A stretch of DNA of 64,000 nt from Planctomycetota bacterium (lineage in GTDB: Bacteria; Planctomycetota; Phycisphaerae; Phycisphaerales; Phycisphaeraceae): NCBI GenBank assembly GCA_024276075.1, contig JAJRXX010000062.1:1-64000 (forward strand), given 5' to 3'. This document shows positions 9,421 through 62,590 of this stretch, in pieces. The notes below the pieces were generated by a model. That model saw nothing but the letters and a program-made list of their open reading frames with translations. It was not told where the DNA came from and ran no database searches. The position numbers were made by a program, and so were the translations under genes. Positions within the stretch are counted from its first letter, which is position 1. Each line of letters opens with the position of its first letter.

Positions 9421-9548
9421 CTAGAGCGGCTGGCGTCAATATTTTCCATCGTGATTGGATAGTAGGTGTAACAAACATCTGTATTTCACGGCTTGCAAGC
9501 AAGCCGTGCCACCCGGTCAATGAAGATTAATGACGCCAGTTGCTCTAG
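9421..9548 (-). mobile_element. family A MITE-like element, copy A1
   Basis: 128 bp including flanking CTAG; the core between the TA dinucleotides is 122 bp. The terminal inverted repeats are TAGAGCGGCTGGCGTCA and, on the opposite strand, TAGAGCAACTGGCGTCA. A central perfect palindrome, CACGGCTTGCAAGCAAGCCGTG, begins at 9487. It is the reverse orientation of copies at 31151 and 57438, and all three are exactly 128 bp. It directly abuts the terminator-like element downstream of the regulator gene. Confidence 0.85.
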
Positions 9549-20723: not shown

Positions 20724-20739
20724 TCACGTCCAGCAATTC

Positions 20740-20843
20740 ATACGCATTGCGTATATTTCTAGCGCGTTGTAAAGAATGTAAGTGATTGTCTGTTTTGCCT
20801 TCGCGTTCGCAGATGACGCACAAGTATTAATCTTGATTGGTAT
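20740..20843 (+). mobile_element. family B MITE-like element, copy B1
   Basis: 104 bp from ATACGCATTGCGTAT to ATTGGTAT, with TA at both ends and a 98-bp core. B1 and B2 lie in opposite orientation with a family D fragment between them, filling most of the 20724-21187 gene-free stretch. Confidence 0.85.
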
Positions 20844-20867
20844 CACCTGTGACATCTACAACGAACC

Positions 20868-26718: not shown

Positions 26719-28230
26719 TCACAGATAGCTCCGCGTCCGAAGACGACTCGCACCGCGTTCAAGACTGATAACCAAGTACCTCAGCGCGTCACACACATGG
26801 TCCGGCCCATCCTTGACCGGATCATCCCGACTCGGATGGTTAGGATCAAAGTGGTACAGCACCATCGCCTCGATCAAACGGCGACACCTCGGGTGTACCC
26901 GCAAGCCCCCATGGTCCAGGCGCCGACGGATACTCTCGATCCCCTCACGGATCATCGACCGATACACCCTGACCTGGTACCCCCTGCGGCGCAGAATCTG
27001 CACGTCGCTTAGACCTGTGTGCGAGTTCCGCTGCCCACCCGCGGGGTCCACCCCGACCCACGCCAGCTCCGGCCAATCACGCTGACCAATCACATCCAGA
27101 TGCTCATCGAGCGTCAACCCACGCTCTACGTATTCGTCGACAATGACAATCTCATCTCCAACGCGATCCCCTCCAAGGTCTTCGCCCAGCCCAACGCGAG
27201 CCCACAACATCACAAACGGACTCCGCAGACCAAAGTCCATACCACCCACCAGTATCTCTCCATCCCCGGGAGGCATCACACCGGGAACACCGCCCTCACA
27301 CACCTCGTCATCATCAACACCAACCGCCAACACATGCTTGCCCCCAGATGCCGGATCAAAACCCGGGTACACCCCGTCACCGTGTCGCGGTCGTCGGCAC
27401 ATCATCTCGCTAGCCCACGTGTCACCGCTTGATCGGTGCCATTGCGTCACCAGATCGTCCACCGACACAAACCCCTCTGCCTCTTTAGCACGACCCTGGC
27501 AGTCTTTCCACAACACACACGACCCGCACTCACGCTCCGGCGCGCAACGCTCGATCACGTCCAACGCACACCATCGCATCACCCGCGTCTGACCACAACC
27601 ACCCGCAGCACTCCGCTCGATCAACCGGTGCATCAACCCAAACGGCCTGTGCATCGTCGACAACGCTTCAACGGTACCCTTGACCGCCACGTCTCCGCAC
27701 ACACCCGACCGCGTCACAAGCTGCGCCGCCTCCCATATGTCCGACTTGAAATCCTCGACCTCATCGCATCGCAATTTATGCACACGCTGACCACGCACCG
27801 ATCGCTGCGATTGGCTTAATAACTCAGCCCTGCTCCCGTTGATCAACTCAACCCCGCGTTGTGTCGGCGTACCCACCACCAACCCCCGCAGCACCGCCAA
27901 ATCGAACATCTGCCGCAGGTACCGGAACATCTTGCTCGATTGCTCAAGGCTACCCCCAAGGATACGCACCTGAATCCCAGCCTTAAACACCATATCCAGA
28001 AGCGTCGCCACCGCACCGAGGTAGGTCTTGCCGCCACCCCGGCTAGCCCAAACAACCAAGTCACCGCCACCCGAATCATTGCCCTCAAAAAAAGTATGCA
28101 CGAGGTACTCAAACGGCGGCGTGCTCCCCTCCATCACCGCGCGACGCGGCACCCGTAGCCCCAGCACCACCGACACAAACCGGTGCAACTCATCCGGCGT
28201 CTCCGGACGCAACACCTTGATCTGTTCCAT
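26719..28230 (-). CDS. phage-type terminase large subunit (ATPase plus nuclease)
   Basis: 503 residues from ATG 28230, preceded by a GGAAG-type ribosome site. In phages TerL pumps and cuts DNA. The N-terminal ATPase has a Walker A variant, ASRGGGKT, at 62-69, GGSLEQSSKMFRYL motor motifs and Walker B LRCDEVED (D156, E157). The C-terminal RNase H-fold nuclease shows three acidic positions: D332 in GGMDFG, D395 in VGVDPAGG and the DHVCDALRY motif (477-485). All catalytic residues therefore look intact. A Cys-rich insert near residue 240 (CAPERECGSCVLWKDC) is unusual and could bind metal. It is the last gene of a minus-strand cassette that lacks portal, capsid and integrase genes. Confidence 0.88.
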   Translation of the reverse strand: MEQIKVLRPETPDELHRFVSVVLGLRVPRRAVMEGSTPPFEYLVHTFFEGNDSGGGDLVVWASRGGGKTYLGAVATLLDMVFKAGIQVRILGGSLEQSSKMFRYLRQMFDLAVLRGLVVGTPTQRGVELINGSRAELLSQSQRSVRGQRVHKLRCDEVEDFKSDIWEAAQLVTRSGVCGDVAVKGTVEALSTMHRPFGLMHRLIERSAAGGCGQTRVMRWCALDVIERCAPERECGSCVLWKDCQGRAKEAEGFVSVDDLVTQWHRSSGDTWASEMMCRRPRHGDGVYPGFDPASGGKHVLAVGVDDDEVCEGGVPGVMPPGDGEILVGGMDFGLRSPFVMLWARVGLGEDLGGDRVGDEIVIVDEYVERGLTLDEHLDVIGQRDWPELAWVGVDPAGGQRNSHTGLSDVQILRRRGYQVRVYRSMIREGIESIRRRLDHGGLRVHPRCRRLIEAMVLYHFDPNHPSRDDPVKDGPDHVCDALRYLVISLERGASRLRTRSYL

Positions 28231-28264
28231 CAACGTCCCGCTTCCCAGCGCACGCCCCCGATCA

Positions 28265-28753
28265 TCAGACACGCTCAATCTCCCCGTCCACCGTTTCCCC
28301 TCGCAACGATTCGCCATTGTCCCCGCCCGCCGCTGCCCCATACAACAACCGCCTCAGCGACAAGACATCCGCCATATCCTCAGACCCGCCCGCTTCCGCA
28401 GCACCGCTCGCCATACCCACAGCCTCCGCACGCTTCAAGTCCATCTTCAACAGGTCCACACAAGCACGCCTAGCCACATCGCGACCACCGTCCGGCCCGT
28501 CTTCCGTCGCCAGCCTGATCAACCGCCCCGCAGCCAGCAACCGGTACCGGCTCAACAACACCTGCGTCTGGAGATCAGCCAACAGGCACAACCCGCTCAA
28601 CGTACGCTGATTTTCGGGTTCCGCGATCCACGCAGCCAAATCGTCAGCATCCAGACCATGCTTTTCGCCCAGCATCACCGGGTCCTGCTGCGCAGCGATG
28701 ATGTCCCCAATTAAACGCTGTCTGCATTCCGTATCTATCTTCTTCTTGCCCAA
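28265..28753 (-). CDS. putative terminase small subunit-like DNA-binding protein
   Basis: 162 residues. The N-terminal half has an HTH-like stretch, LGEKHGLDADDLAAWI, followed by AEPENQRTLSGL. A long helical segment around LQTQVLLSRYRLLAAGRLIRLA and an alpha-helical C-terminal part follow. The position immediately before terL (34 bases) and the HTH plus helical oligomerisation layout fit a small terminase subunit, which recognises DNA and recruits TerL. Family assignment is by context and composition only. Confidence 0.6.
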   Translation of the reverse strand: MGKKKIDTECRQRLIGDIIAAQQDPVMLGEKHGLDADDLAAWIAEPENQRTLSGLCLLADLQTQVLLSRYRLLAAGRLIRLATEDGPDGGRDVARRACVDLLKMDLKRAEAVGMASGAAEAGGSEDMADVLSLRRLLYGAAAGGDNGESLRGETVDGEIERV

Positions 28754-28780
28754 AATACCCCCTCAGCCACACCGCTACAG

Positions 28781-29041
28781 CTACGACACATTCTCATCCA
28801 CCCGATCGACTAGCCCCATCAGTGCCTCTTCACGCGACCCGCCGATCTTTCTCAAACAGTGATTCAGCCGCTTAACCTGCTCCGGCAGCAAGAAAAAATG
28901 CACCGACACCGGCATATCATCCAACCGGACCGGCGACCGGGGCGACGGCGGCGCCTCGTGCAACGCCAACAACCTTTGCAAACCCTCCACCTCCTCGGGC
29001 AACATCTCAGCCAACGAATCCAATCCAAAACGCTCACTCAA
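28781..29041 (-). CDS. small unknown protein of the terminase cassette
   Basis: 86 codons starting at TTG; an ATG at codon 13 is an alternative. No family recognised. It contains VSVHFFLLPEQVKRLNHCLRK, an amphipathic helix after a beta strand, followed by GGSREEALMGLVDRVDE. It sits between the ParB-like gene (9-base gap) and the small terminase-like gene (27-base gap), so it is almost certainly part of the same transcript and function. Confidence 0.6.
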   Translation of the reverse strand: MSERFGLDSLAEMLPEEVEGLQRLLALHEAPPSPRSPVRLDDMPVSVHFFLLPEQVKRLNHCLRKIGGSREEALMGLVDRVDENVS

Positions 29042-29050
29042 CCGCGTGAC

Positions 29051-29371
29051 CTAACCCGCACGTTTAAAAACGTCGTCACCACCCCGCAACTGATTGAGCG
29101 TCGCCAACAACACCAACGCCTCATCATCACCCACCTCCCATACCACGCAGCAAGCCTCTGCCCTACCGATCTTTCTCAACGCCATAACACGATGATGCCC
29201 GTCAAGAATCTGATACCCATCCCCATCACCCAACAGCCGAACAATGATCGGGGGGTACCTCTCACTTTTCTCAATATGCCCAGCCAGCTTGGCCAACAGG
29301 TTAGCTGGCATCTCGTTGCAATTTGCCGGGTGTGGCCGCAATAGATCGATTTCGATTTGCTTGGTGTTCAT
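29051..29371 (-). CDS. ParB/Srx-fold domain protein (single-domain ParB-like)
   Basis: 106 residues forming only the ParB N-terminal nuclease/CTPase-type fold: IDLLRPHPANCNE, PIIVRLLGDGDGYQILDGHHRVMALRKIG (the GHHR box) and VWEVGDDEALVLLATLNQLRG. No HTH or C-terminal dimer domain of chromosomal ParB is present, so it is not a partition protein. Its ATG overlaps the stop of the GNAT gene (ATGA), showing translational coupling. Single-domain ParB proteins of this type can be nucleases, ATPases or CTP-binding switches. Confidence 0.8.
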   Translation of the reverse strand: MNTKQIEIDLLRPHPANCNEMPANLLAKLAGHIEKSERYPPIIVRLLGDGDGYQILDGHHRVMALRKIGRAEACCVVWEVGDDEALVLLATLNQLRGGDDVFKRAG

Positions 29372-30231
29372 AACGATCCCCCATCCACAACCGCGTCACA
29401 ACGGGGAACACCGCCAACCTCGCCCCCGCCCGCCCTGTTGTCCTTGAGAAAGTAAACCGGCTCGCACAACAGCCGCTGCTGCGCCAACCGCAAACGCTCG
29501 CCCACACTGTCGCTCCGATTCCGCCTCCGCCCCATCACCTGCCGATACCACCTATCCAACTCGCCTAGCAACCACCGACGCTCACCATCTGCTAGTCCCA
29601 TGATCCGCCGCTCGGTCTCGTCTAACACCGCCAAGTCCATCGGCTCGATACCCACCCACTTCAGCGCCGCACCTAACCTGGCGTCGTACACATGTGCCGG
29701 ACGACGGTACGCGGTCATCCCCGCCCTCTCGAAAAACGGGTGCACGCTACCCATCGCAGCCAGTGCCTCAGTAAAAGCCGTCTCCGGCTTGGTCAACGAC
29801 GCCTTGACCAGCCTCACCGCCAAACCCAGACCACGCCACTGTGGGTGCACAACCACCCTGCTGATGCACCGGACCTCCGCGTTGATGACCACCGCTCGCT
29901 GACGCATGTCCCTAATCTGCCCGTACCGATTATGCAACGCAAAATCACGTAGCCGGCAGCTCAGCGTTGAATACGACTCGACCAACACACCCACCACACG
30001 CCCGCTGCCCCCCCGACCCAGGTACCGATCACCCACCCCGCCACATTTATCTCGCAGCACAATCACTCTGCCAAACGTAACCGGTGCCCGAGCCTTGTAA
30101 TGGTGCCCCGCCAGCACCGCGTAATCACGCCTGCCGCCCTCTTCCAAAACCAGACGCCCCTCGACCCCGCCCGCAGGCAATCTTGCAAACCGCTCTTTGA
30201 CCGTCCTCTCTTTCTCCATTTCATGCGTCAT
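29368..30231 (-). CDS. GNAT acetyltransferase-like half of a split ABC-ATPase/GNAT gene
   Basis: 287 residues from ATG 30231, whose first bases are the TA flank of element B3. An in-frame upstream extension to 30285 lies wholly in the element. The central GNAT fold has motif A VVVHPQWRGLGLA at 126-138 (the V-x-P-x-x-R-G-x-G acetyl-CoA loop), followed by AMGSVHPFFERAGM. This combination is characteristic of ATPase-acetyltransferase fusion proteins of the COG2401 type, where this part is C-terminal. A basic C-terminal tail (about residues 200-260) may bind nucleic acid. If the upstream element were removed, this frame would be continuous with the ATPase gene. Confidence 0.8.
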   Translation of the reverse strand: MTHEMEKERTVKERFARLPAGGVEGRLVLEEGGRRDYAVLAGHHYKARAPVTFGRVIVLRDKCGGVGDRYLGRGGSGRVVGVLVESYSTLSCRLRDFALHNRYGQIRDMRQRAVVINAEVRCISRVVVHPQWRGLGLAVRLVKASLTKPETAFTEALAAMGSVHPFFERAGMTAYRRPAHVYDARLGAALKWVGIEPMDLAVLDETERRIMGLADGERRWLLGELDRWYRQVMGRRRNRSDSVGERLRLAQQRLLCEPVYFLKDNRAGGGEVGGVPRCDAVVDGGSL

Positions 30232-30333
30232 ACCAATCACCATAAGTATTGTCCTACTGTCCTTGTACGCGGAACCAGATGTCACAAATACTTATGTCTA
30301 TGCGACGCGGTCAAAACATACGCGGATGCGTAT
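30230..30333 (-). mobile_element. family B MITE-like element, copy B3, splitting the ABC-ATPase/GNAT gene
   Basis: 104 bp from ATACCAATCAC to GATGCGTAT. The TA flanks are at 30231-30232 and 30331-30332, with a 98-bp core between. It supplies the last residues (THPRMF) and stop of the ATPase frame and the upstream in-frame residues of the GNAT frame. Removing 30231-30330 joins the two frames. Confidence 0.9.
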
Positions 30334-31033
30334 CAGACTGATTCAGCACCTCGACTCCCTCACCAAATTCTTTCACCACCAGCACGTCAGGCTCAAGCGG
30401 CTCAAGCAAGTCATCGTGCGTCGTCGCCGCGATGAAACACACATTCGCCTGGCGACGCGTCCACTTACGCACATTCTTAGCGATCACCGCAGCCGTCAGG
30501 CGGTCGAGCGTCGAGCCAAACTCGTCACCCAAGACCACCTGTAGCACCCCGCCATCCCCCGCGCTTACCATCGCCAGCACATGCGCCAGCCTCAGGCGAT
30601 ACCGCTGACCATCCGACAATTCGCTAGGCTTACGCAACATCACAAACGCATCATTCAAACCCGCCAAGCTCAGCACTCGCAACACGTCCTCCAACGCCAT
30701 ACTGCCCACCGCTTCTGAAAGACAGTCCACCAGCGCCCGATCAGCGAGCACCGGCAAGTCATCAAAACGAATCAGCCTCGCACTCTTATCACCCCCAACA
30801 GCCTCCGCGATCAATCTCAAGATGGTGCTCTTACCACTCCCACTAGGGCCGGTGACGAACACCAACTCACCGCCCCGCAACACCAGCTTCGTCGCGGTCA
30901 CGACCACCTGCGTCCGGCGCTCATCGATCCCCAGACCGAACATCGTCGCCACCCGCAACACGTGCGGCGACACCTCCACTGCCGTGCCGTAAAGGCACTC
31001 TAAATCAACTTCTAATACCAGCCCTTGATTCAT
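30311..31033 (-). CDS. ABC-type ATPase half of a split ABC-ATPase/GNAT gene
   Basis: 240 residues. Soluble ABC ATPase without transporter features: Walker A GPSGSGKST (62-70), signature LSDGQ (139-143), Walker B VVLGDEFGSTLD (D170, E171) and switch histidine H206 in ATTHDDLL. All motifs are intact, so it could hydrolyse ATP. The final residues THPRMF and the TGA stop come from element B3. In related COG2401-type proteins this domain is followed directly by the GNAT domain. The protein ends exactly where that linker would start. AGGG lies nine bases before the ATG. Confidence 0.85.
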   Translation of the reverse strand: MNQGLVLEVDLECLYGTAVEVSPHVLRVATMFGLGIDERRTQVVVTATKLVLRGGELVFVTGPSGSGKSTILRLIAEAVGGDKSARLIRFDDLPVLADRALVDCLSEAVGSMALEDVLRVLSLAGLNDAFVMLRKPSELSDGQRYRLRLAHVLAMVSAGDGGVLQVVLGDEFGSTLDRLTAAVIAKNVRKWTRRQANVCFIAATTHDDLLEPLEPDVLVVKEFGEGVEVLNQSDTHPRMF

Positions 31034-31069
31034 AGATCATGCCCTGGTTTGAAATCAAGAATGACCACC

Positions 31070-31141
31070 ACAAACCGCGAACGTCAGGGAGCGGGCAATT
31101 TGTTACAACCAAACACTACCTATGCGTTGAAAATGCTCTAG
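31070..31141 (+). repeat. family E long-type repeat
   Basis: Reads AAACCGCGAACGTCAGGGAGCGGGC, then a conserved extension CAACCAAACACTAC.TATGCGTTGA and ends AATGCTCTA. It matches 51239-51308 along its full length of about 70 bp. It lies between the ATPase gene and element A2, upstream of the cassette's ATPase start. Confidence 0.7.
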
Positions 31142-31150
31142 GCAACATCC

Positions 31151-31278
31151 CTAGAGCAACTGGCGTCATTAATCTTCATTGACCGGGTGGCACGGCTTGC
31201 TTGCAAGCCGTGAAATACAGATGTTTGTTACACCTACGATCCAATCAAGATGGAAAATATTGACGCCAGTTGCTCTAG
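31151..31278 (+). mobile_element. family A MITE-like element, copy A2
   Basis: 128 bp, terminal inverted repeats TAGAGCAACTGGCGTCA perfect at both ends (core 31154-31275 between TA dinucleotides). The central hairpin is CACGGCTTGCTTGCAAGCCGTG. The TA plus the first G of the element form the stop codon of the HTH gene. Confidence 0.9.
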
Positions 31279-31685
31279 GCCTCAGCCAAAGCCTGCACAA
31301 TCTGCATATGTTGACGGGTTTGGTGCAGGCTCTGATTACTGATCTCGCTGGCACGCCGCAAGCTGCAACCTTTGAGCACCACAAGGTCCGCCGTACGACG
31401 GGTCGCCTCTGATAGCAGATCGCTGTGCGCCAACATGAACGAAAACAGCGGCCCGTTTATGTGCTTCAATAATTTGTCAACACGTCTGCGTAAATTCTTC
31501 GGCGACTGACCGCTCAGCCGTGCAACATCAACAATCCCAACCCCATGACGGTACACCTGCTCAATCAATAGCCGATCTGATTCCTCCAGGTGCACAGCCC
31601 GATCCAGTAGCCGCTCGACCCGCTCACGCCGTCTATGACGCCGCGCAAGACCCGCTTCGGTGGCAATTTCAATTGCGTAAGACAT
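31275..31685 (-). CDS. helix-turn-helix (sigma region 4-like) protein between two MITEs
   Basis: 136 residues from ATG 31685. Two HTH-like segments: GVGIVDVARLSGQSPKNLRRRVDKLLKHI, and later KGCSLRRASEISNQSLHQTRQHMQIV. The first resembles sigma70 region 4. The stop TAG is made by element A2, so a native C-terminus could have been longer. Element B4 ends 11 bases upstream of the ATG, and a GTG four codons earlier is at the B4 edge. Upstream of and co-oriented with the ATPase-ParB-terminase genes, it may be their regulator. No ribosome site is evident because B4 occupies that region. Confidence 0.65.
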   Translation of the reverse strand: MSYAIEIATEAGLARRHRRRERVERLLDRAVHLEESDRLLIEQVYRHGVGIVDVARLSGQSPKNLRRRVDKLLKHINGPLFSFMLAHSDLLSEATRRTADLVVLKGCSLRRASEISNQSLHQTRQHMQIVQALAEA

Positions 31686-31695
31686 ATGCAAACTC

Positions 31696-31798
31696 ACACC
31701 AATCCTGTTTAAAACTTGTGCGTGTTTACGAACGCGGAAACATGACAGGCAATAACTTACAGACTCTCCGACGCGCTAAAAACATACGCAATGCGTAT
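31696..31798 (-). mobile_element. family B MITE-like element, copy B4
   Basis: 103 bp from ACACCAATCC to ATGCGTAT. The left TA has become CA. It replaces the immediate upstream region of the HTH gene. Central sequence is more diverged than in other copies. Confidence 0.75.
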
Positions 31799-32119
31799 CA
31801 GAGATGGCTATGAACCAATCACCCAAACGTCAGCCATATGGATCGTGGCAACCCCCCCCTACCGCCCCTCGTTCTCACCACCCGCCTCCAGTGAAAATTA
31901 ACACCCGCCTCTACTTCTAACCGCTCCAAACCCCCATTTGTGCGCATATATCCGGCACCTCGTGATCAATTAAACAAAATTACCCGCTCCCACATTCGTT
32001 ACAACCGTTACAACCCCTACAATCGATACCCGCAAACCAAACAGGAGCGATAACCACAACCACGCACATGTCTACAGCATGCAGCACAGGGTAAACGCTT
32101 ATCGGATATGAAAATCAGC
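31799..32119. other. gene-free stretch between the HTH gene and the debranching enzyme
   Basis: No supported gene or known RNA seen. A short direct run of TTACAACCGTTACAACCCC-type sequence occurs near 31995-32015. The 3' end of the debranching gene (minus) faces this region, and it may hold promoters for the HTH gene. Confidence 0.5.
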
Positions 32120-51023: not shown

Positions 51024-51042
51024 GTGGGGCCAATCGTGACTC

Positions 51043-51146
51043 ATACACATTGCGTATATTTCTAGCGCGTCGCAAGTAATGTAAGCTATTGCCTATTCTG
51101 TTCCCGCGTTCGCAGATACCGCGCAAGTATTAATCTTGATTGGTCT
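51043..51146 (+). mobile_element. family B MITE-like element, copy B6
   Basis: 104 bp from ATACACATTGCGTAT to ATTGGTCT; the right TA has changed to TC. Followed without a gap by a CACTGGTTGC hairpin. Confidence 0.85.
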
Positions 51147-51213
51147 CACTGGTTGCAAGCAACCAGTGCCATTCAACCGTCCCAATTTAGCCACGGGTGA
51201 TTACACCCGTGGC
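51147..51213. repeat. two adjacent palindromic hairpins
   Basis: 51147-51168 is CACTGGTTGC/GCAACCAGTG. 51190-51213 is GCCACGGGTG/CACCCGTGGC with ATTA loop. The second recurs exactly at 54055-54078. Both lie between MITE B6 and a long family E repeat. Confidence 0.75.
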
Positions 51214-57437: not shown

Positions 57438-57565
57438 TTAAAGCGTCTGGCGTAATTAATCTCCATTGACCGGGTGGCACGGCTTGCTTGCAAGCCGTGA
57501 AATACAGATGTCTGTTACACCTGCGGTCCAATCAAGATGGCGAATATTGACGCCAGTTGCTCTAG
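57438..57565 (+). mobile_element. family A MITE-like element, copy A3
   Basis: 128 bp with intact right end TAGAGCAACTGGCGTCA (opposite strand) and diverged left end TAAAGCGTCTGGCGT. Its interior is nearly identical to A2 (central hairpin CACGGCTTGCTTGCAAGCCGTG). It lies in the gap 57312-57647 before the PilZ gene; the rest of the gap shows nothing. Confidence 0.85.
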
Positions 57566-57647
57566 CCCAATGGCCAATAGCGCCAAACAGGTTCCGATAA
57601 AAGCATTTAACAATTCCCCGTCATGAAGCCGATATTAAATAACGGCT

Positions 57648-62455: not shown

Positions 62456-62478
62456 ATCTTCTGCTTTGAAAACACCTT

Positions 62479-62590
62479 ATACGCATTGCGTATAGTTCTA
62501 TCGCGTCGTAGGTGATGTAAATGATTGTCTGTTCTGTTCCCGCGTTCGCAGGCACCACGCAAACACGCAAGTATTAATCTTGATTGGTAT
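62479..62590 (+). mobile_element. family B MITE-like element, copy B7
   Basis: 112 bp from ATACGCATTGCGTAT to ATTGGTAT with TA at both ends; eight bases longer than the other copies because of a short duplication around ACGCAAAC near 62557-62569. Confidence 0.85.

What the first reader, a model, noticed from the sequence alone, without database searches (positions are those of the whole stretch)
29368..31033. A MITE splits an ABC-ATPase/acetyltransferase fusion gene, and its removal restores the frame
The ATPase ORF ends in residues THPRMF and TGA that lie inside element B3. The GNAT frame begins at the other side of B3. If 30231-30330 (98-bp core plus one TA, 100 bp) is removed, the codons read ...CAG TCT GAT ATG ACG CAT GAA... 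in a single frame of 521 codons, running from the ATPase start to the GNAT stop. Fused ATPase-GNAT proteins of this kind are known (COG2401 type), with the same domain order. The insertion therefore looks recent, and the two halves might still associate as separate polypeptides.
Basis: seen in the sequence. Interest (0 to 1): 0.85.

Follow-up and report, generated by a model that had tools for sequence, protein, structure and literature searches.

The report
Mini-transposon between two partner genes
A 98-bp mobile element sits exactly at the joint between an ATPase gene and an acetyltransferase gene, and cutting it out does join their reading frames, but nearly all relatives (including the closest) keep the two as separate, usually overlapping genes, so it most likely pushed two neighbours apart rather than breaking a long-standing fusion gene.

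Summary
Observation confirmed: core 30233-30330 flanked by TA on both sides; removing 100 bp gives one 521-codon frame. The element is a family of about 40 copies in this 2.88-Mb genome, seen in none of 60 related genomes, with TA duplications in a palindromic ATAT-type target, as for IS630/Tc1-type MITEs. This copy is among the least mutated (5 of 98 positions from consensus).

Of 54 distinct homologous loci with both parts adjacent, 48 encode two genes, 30 of them with the 4-nt or 1-nt overlap typical of translational coupling; 6 are fused. The tree needs at least three fusions, all outside the window's supported clade. A short-lived fusion in this lineage is not excluded: about even odds against one small post-insertion change in the ATPase tail. 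The element now supplies the ATPase's last six codons and stop, and possibly the GNAT's ribosome site and start.

The pair belongs to a syntenic chromosomal cassette (sigma-like, ATPase, GNAT, ParB, two small ORFs, terminase large subunit) shared across Phycisphaerales.

The parts
30314..31033 (-). ABC-type ATPase, 240 aa; its last six residues (THPRMF) and stop (30311-30313) come from the element
   Evidence: Pfam ABC_tran 2.3e-9; phage ABC-ATPase family phrog_293 3.9e-27; Walker A GPSGSGKST, signature LSDGQRYR, Walker B VVLGDEF, ATTHDD conserved in 15 relatives
30233..30330 (.). 98-bp core of the MITE (copy B3)
   Evidence: alignment of 40 genomic copies with flanks, conserved block starts and ends here apart from the flanking ATA/TAT; 5 differences from the consensus
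30331..30332 (.). TA target duplication, ATPase side
   Evidence: sequence and copy alignment
30231..30232 (.). TA target duplication, GNAT side; its A is the first base of the GNAT ATG (30231-30229)
   Evidence: sequence and copy alignment
30241..30255 (-). element-borne AGGA (30255-30252), 8-nt spacer, ATG (30243-30241) in frame with the GNAT: candidate new ribosome site and start (MVIG-MTHEMEK...)
   Evidence: read directly from the sequence; function inferred, not tested
29368..30231 (-). GNAT-type acetyltransferase, 287 aa from the ATG at the element edge; intact
   Evidence: phrog_886 2.6e-11; weak N-acetyltransferase hit; QWRGLGLA motif and about 50 invariant columns in 14 relatives; ends TTATGA, ATGA overlap with ParB start
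29051..29371 (-). ParB_N-domain protein, next gene of the cassette, coupled to the GNAT by an ATGA overlap
   Evidence: Pfam ParB_N 3.4e-6; same position in 10 of 10 relatives
28781..29041 (-). conserved 86-aa ORF of the cassette
   Evidence: found in the same place in 10 of 10 relatives
28265..28753 (-). conserved ORF in the position of a terminase small subunit (162 aa)
   Evidence: found in the same place in 10 of 10 relatives; no family hit, so the name is by position only
26719..28341 (-). terminase large subunit homologue, 540 aa
   Evidence: Terminase_6C 2.5e-5; phrog_2 1.6e-20
31275..31697 (-). sigma-70-region-4-like protein, first gene of the cassette (140 aa)
   Evidence: weak sigma-70 hit 4.8e-4; same position in 9 of 10 relatives

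Best explanation
A non-autonomous IS630/Tc1-type element (98-bp MITE) inserted with TA duplication at the joint of two adjacent genes of one operon, an ABC-type ATPase and a GNAT, in the lineage of this Phycisphaeraceae bacterium. In this gene family the pair is normally two genes, mostly overlapping by 4 nt (ATGA type), that is, translationally coupled. The insertion moved the two apart by about 80 nt, gave the ATPase a new six-residue tail and stop, and left the GNAT with a start at the element's edge (ATG 30231) or inside it (ATG 30243 behind an AGGA). Both proteins remain full length with intact motifs and can work as separate polypeptides, as they do in relatives. The in-frame empty site is explained either by a short-lived lineage-specific fusion or by one small change in the ATPase tail (1-nt indel, or loss of a stop codon) after the element had made the tail free to drift. 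Shown: element, target duplication, two-gene state in relatives. Inferred: coupling, new start, order of events.
For: 48 of 54 distinct loci separate, 30 with -4/-1 overlaps, 5 in phase with a stop between; window clade of 27 rows holds 26 separate and 1 unscorable, fusions elsewhere at least 3 times; the GNAT-ParB joint in the window itself is an ATGA overlap; with the ATPase tail one base shorter, the empty site reads NQSD-TGA, exactly an ATGA overlap with the GNAT ATG. Multi-copy MITE private to this genome; TA and palindromic target; other copies lie at gene edges, three of them (L016, L023, L027) directly behind a stop codon of the form TRA|TA.
Against: The simplest reading of the empty site is one open frame; no stop lies between the two parts. 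The element is young (5 of 98 differences), so little time has passed for a frame change in the tail: from the indel/substitution ratio in the copies (27/511) the chance is only about 3-7% for an 11-25-nt tail.
Confidence: 0.8

Rival explanations
1. The lineage had fused the two genes into one 521-codon gene shortly before, and the MITE split that fusion again (gene fission by a mobile element).
For: Exact in-frame empty site; fusions of the same order arose at least three times among relatives; young element. Parsimony rate of fusion gives about 4% for the window's end branch, similar to the chance of the alternative path, so the odds are about even.
Against: No fused homologue in the window's supported clade; the sister is separate. 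One extra event (a fusion) is needed that left no other trace.
Confidence: 0.42
2. Fusion is the ancestral state of the family and the window shows recent damage to it.
For: Fused forms exist.
Against: 48 of 54 loci separate; window clade wholly separate; the related phage genes are also separate, with a small ORF between them.
Confidence: 0.03
3. The repeat is not a transposable element but a conserved regulatory or structural repeat placed between genes.
For: Copies lie mostly between genes, some just before starts; it can fold (-29.7 kcal/mol).
Against: Folding is not exceptional (z -1.3); TA at both ends, palindromic insertion preference, graded divergence of 5 to 24 changes, no copy in 60 relatives; a decayed IS630-type element with a matching end ATACGCATTCA is in the same genome.
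Confidence: 0.06

Closest known systems
IS630/Tc1-type MITEs of bacteria
   Same: About 100 bp, non-coding, about 40 copies, TA duplication, ATAT-type target, hairpin-forming, a transposase of the DDE_3 family with a similar terminus in the genome
   Different: Terminal inverted repeat is short and imperfect (ATACGCATC against ATACCAATC, 7 of 9); the parental element was not identified with certainty
MITEs that interrupt genes, e.g. hupL in Candidatus Thiomargarita nelsonii (PMC4853749)
   Same: Small multi-copy element interrupting or sitting between coding parts of an uncultured bacterium; fusion or disruption ambiguous there too
   Different: Here both parts are complete proteins and relatives show that the joint is a natural gene boundary
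ABC-ATPase plus GNAT genes next to the terminase in Nickievirus and SSU5-like phages (phrog_293, phrog_886)
   Same: ATPase 40% identical over 215 aa; GNAT related by profile (probability 97.8%); same neighbours ParB and terminase
   Different: In phage the two genes have a small ORF and a methylase nearby and are followed by a portal gene; here no virion gene adjoins
ABC ATPase-acetyltransferase fusion proteins (COG2401 type, from memory)
   Same: The two domain types and, in six planctomycete relatives, the same order
   Different: In the window they are two polypeptides; COG2401 itself was not tested

Membership tests
IS630/Tc1-type MITE | Multi-copy, short, no coding capacity | tested here: met
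   41 matches in the genome, consensus core 98 bp
IS630/Tc1-type MITE | TA target duplication | tested here: met
   TA at the left end in 37 and at the right end in 35 of 40 copies, flanks otherwise unrelated; palindromic preference T.ATAT.A; no empty site was available
IS630/Tc1-type MITE | Terminal inverted repeats | tested here: inconclusive
   Only 7 of 9 positions match; no repeat of 12 or more found
IS630/Tc1-type MITE | Related autonomous element with the same ends | tested here: inconclusive
   Decayed DDE_3 element on contig C74 with 11-bp end ATACGCATTCA on both sides and TA flanks matches one MITE end; the other end differs
ATPase-GNAT fusion protein | Both domains in one open frame | tested here: not met
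   Two frames in the window; one frame only after removal of 100 bp
ATPase-GNAT fusion protein | Fused in the closest relatives | tested here: not met
   Sister and whole supported clade separate
ABC-type ATPase / GNAT gene pair of the phage terminase-side module | Homologous ATPase and GNAT next to ParB and terminase genes | tested here: met
   the TerL itself is only remotely related to phage TerLs

The most novel reading that the evidence does not exclude
A mobile element split a young natural gene fusion in frame and at once gave the downstream half its own ribosome site and start codon (AGGA, 8 nt, ATG at the element's end), so that a MITE carried out gene fission with both products kept.
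Probability: 0.2. Interest if true: 0.45.

Novelty: new member of a known kind. Interest (0 to 1): 0.25.

Why it matters
It is a clear case of a MITE landing between two translationally coupled genes and a warning about inferring an ancestral fusion from a restored frame: at a joint of two adjacent genes this happens by chance in about one case in three. The homologues also show repeated fusion of this ATPase-GNAT pair, which suggests that the two proteins act together. The neighbouring cassette, a phage-type packaging gene set kept at one chromosomal place across an order of planctomycetes, deserves more attention than the insertion.

Tried and rejected
Target duplications longer than TA: tested against shuffled flanks, none. 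Promoter or terminator in the element: none found. Structured RNA: folding not exceptional; alignment A3 mixed element orientations and was not used. A repeat insertion at the same joint in G028 (500-nt gap): single copy there, so no element. Gene transfer agent: Phage_portal and HK97 Phage_capsid are missing from most genomes that hold the cassette, so a GTA of that type is unlikely; other portal and capsid families were not searched. Literature on COG2401 and on Phycisphaera terminases: nothing useful. Transfer of the MITE's open frame into downstream genes (L002, L028 look similar to B3): expected by chance in one of three insertions, not pursued.

Full report
What is there. On the minus strand an ABC-type ATPase gene (31033-30311) is followed by a GNAT gene (ATG at 30231, stop at 29368-29370). 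Between them lies a 98-bp core, 30233-30330, with TA on both sides. The other frame offsets stop within a few codons, so an in-frame result at such a joint has a chance of about one in three.

The element. BLAST in the own genome (2.88 Mb, 77 contigs) gives 41 matches. Aligning 40 copies with their flanks shows a sharp conserved block ATA-CGCATCC...GATTGG-TAT with unrelated flanks. TA stands at both ends in most copies, the surrounding preference T.ATAT.A is palindromic, and no longer duplication is found. This fits IS630/Tc1-type transposition. The inverted ends are short and imperfect (ATACGCATC and ATACCAATC). Five DDE_3 transposase matches, mostly partial, exist in the genome; one decayed element on contig C74 has the end ATACGCATTCA at both sides. 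None of 60 relatives has the MITE. B3 differs from the consensus at 5 of 98 positions and has no indel, which ties it for the youngest copy; the search started from B3, which may favour this slightly.

The relatives. A search of 61 genomes of the family and order, one of the whole family and one of named genomes gave homologous loci. Reading every joint (tally): 54 distinct loci have ATPase and GNAT adjacent; 48 are separate genes, 30 with a 4-nt or 1-nt overlap, 5 with other overlaps, 13 with gaps; 5 of the 48 are in phase with a stop between. Six are fused, all in the order ATPase-GNAT. On a tree of 61 GNATs the fused rows need three changes and all lie outside the supported clade that holds the window; that clade has 26 separate rows and one that cannot be scored; the sister of the window (L100, the same locus as L032) has TAA directly followed by GTG. 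The ancestral state before this lineage was therefore two genes.

What happened just before the insertion. Two paths lead to the present sequence. (a) A fusion arose on the window's own branch and the MITE split it: with 3 fusions over a tree length of 32.4 the chance on a branch of 0.43 is about 4%. (b) The genes were separate, and after the element had supplied a new stop the ATPase tail changed by one small step. If the tail were one base shorter, the empty site would read NQSD-TGA with the TGA overlapping the GNAT ATG, the commonest arrangement in the relatives and the one still seen at the GNAT-ParB joint of the window (TTATGA). The copies give 27 indels per 511 substitutions, hence about 3-7% for an 11-25-nt tail, halved for the right phase; loss of an in-phase stop (for example TAG to CAG three codons before the element) adds about 1% (own estimate). 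The odds are about even and only an empty site can decide.

How it works now. Both proteins are complete against 14 to 15 relatives with conserved motifs, so the insertion did no visible damage. The ATPase gained THPRMF and a TGA from the element. The GNAT can start at the ATG formed at the edge (30231) or at the element's own ATG (30243), which stands 8 nt behind AGGA in the right frame; this is inference. No promoter or terminator was recognised, and the RNA fold is not exceptional, so one transcript across the element is expected.

Surroundings. The two genes are part of a cassette sigma-like - ATPase - GNAT - ParB - 86-aa ORF - 162-aa ORF - terminase large subunit, present with homologues of all the listed core genes in ten of ten relatives inspected, often between glycogen debranching enzyme/MraY and MqnA genes as in the window (in G005 the GNAT lies before the sigma-like gene). 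Nickievirus and SSU5-like phages carry homologous ATPase and GNAT genes beside ParB and terminase, and there too the genes are separate. Portal and HK97-capsid families are absent from most cassette-bearing genomes. A packaging-type gene set without virion genes, kept at one place, looks domesticated; its function is unknown and lies outside the finding.

Verdict. Observation confirmed, interpretation partly supported, ordinary in kind.

Noticed in passing
window 26719-31697 (minus) and L089-L098: Syntenic chromosomal cassette sigma-like, ABC ATPase, GNAT, ParB, two small ORFs, terminase large subunit in ten of ten Phycisphaerales relatives inspected, without adjoining portal or capsid genes; homologous to the terminase side of Nickievirus/SSU5-like phages. 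Looks like a domesticated phage packaging module.
   Followed up: partly
L127, L132, L142, L146, L147, L150: Independent ATPase-GNAT fusions, at least three origins, always ATPase first.
   Followed up: partly
L074 1240-2497 (contig C74 of the own genome): Decayed IS630-type element with 11-bp ends ATACGCATTCA and TA flanks; possible relative of the MITE's parent.
   Followed up: partly
window 20738-20846, 51041-51149, 62477-62585, 31722-31801: A second repeat family; copies read near the end show the same ATTGGTAT terminus as the B3 family.
   Followed up: no
window 9421-9548, 31151-31278, 57439-57568: A third repeat family of about 128 bp, 89-97% alike, with one copy just upstream of the ATPase gene and overlapping the end of the sigma-like ORF.
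   Followed up: no
L016, L023, L027 (own genome): MITE copies inserted directly behind a stop codon of the form TGA|TA or TAA|TA; the target preference makes stop codons natural landing sites.
   Followed up: partly
L053 and L123/L056 (G005, G034): Gene order changed: GNAT lies upstream of the sigma-like gene and the ATPase follows.
   Followed up: no
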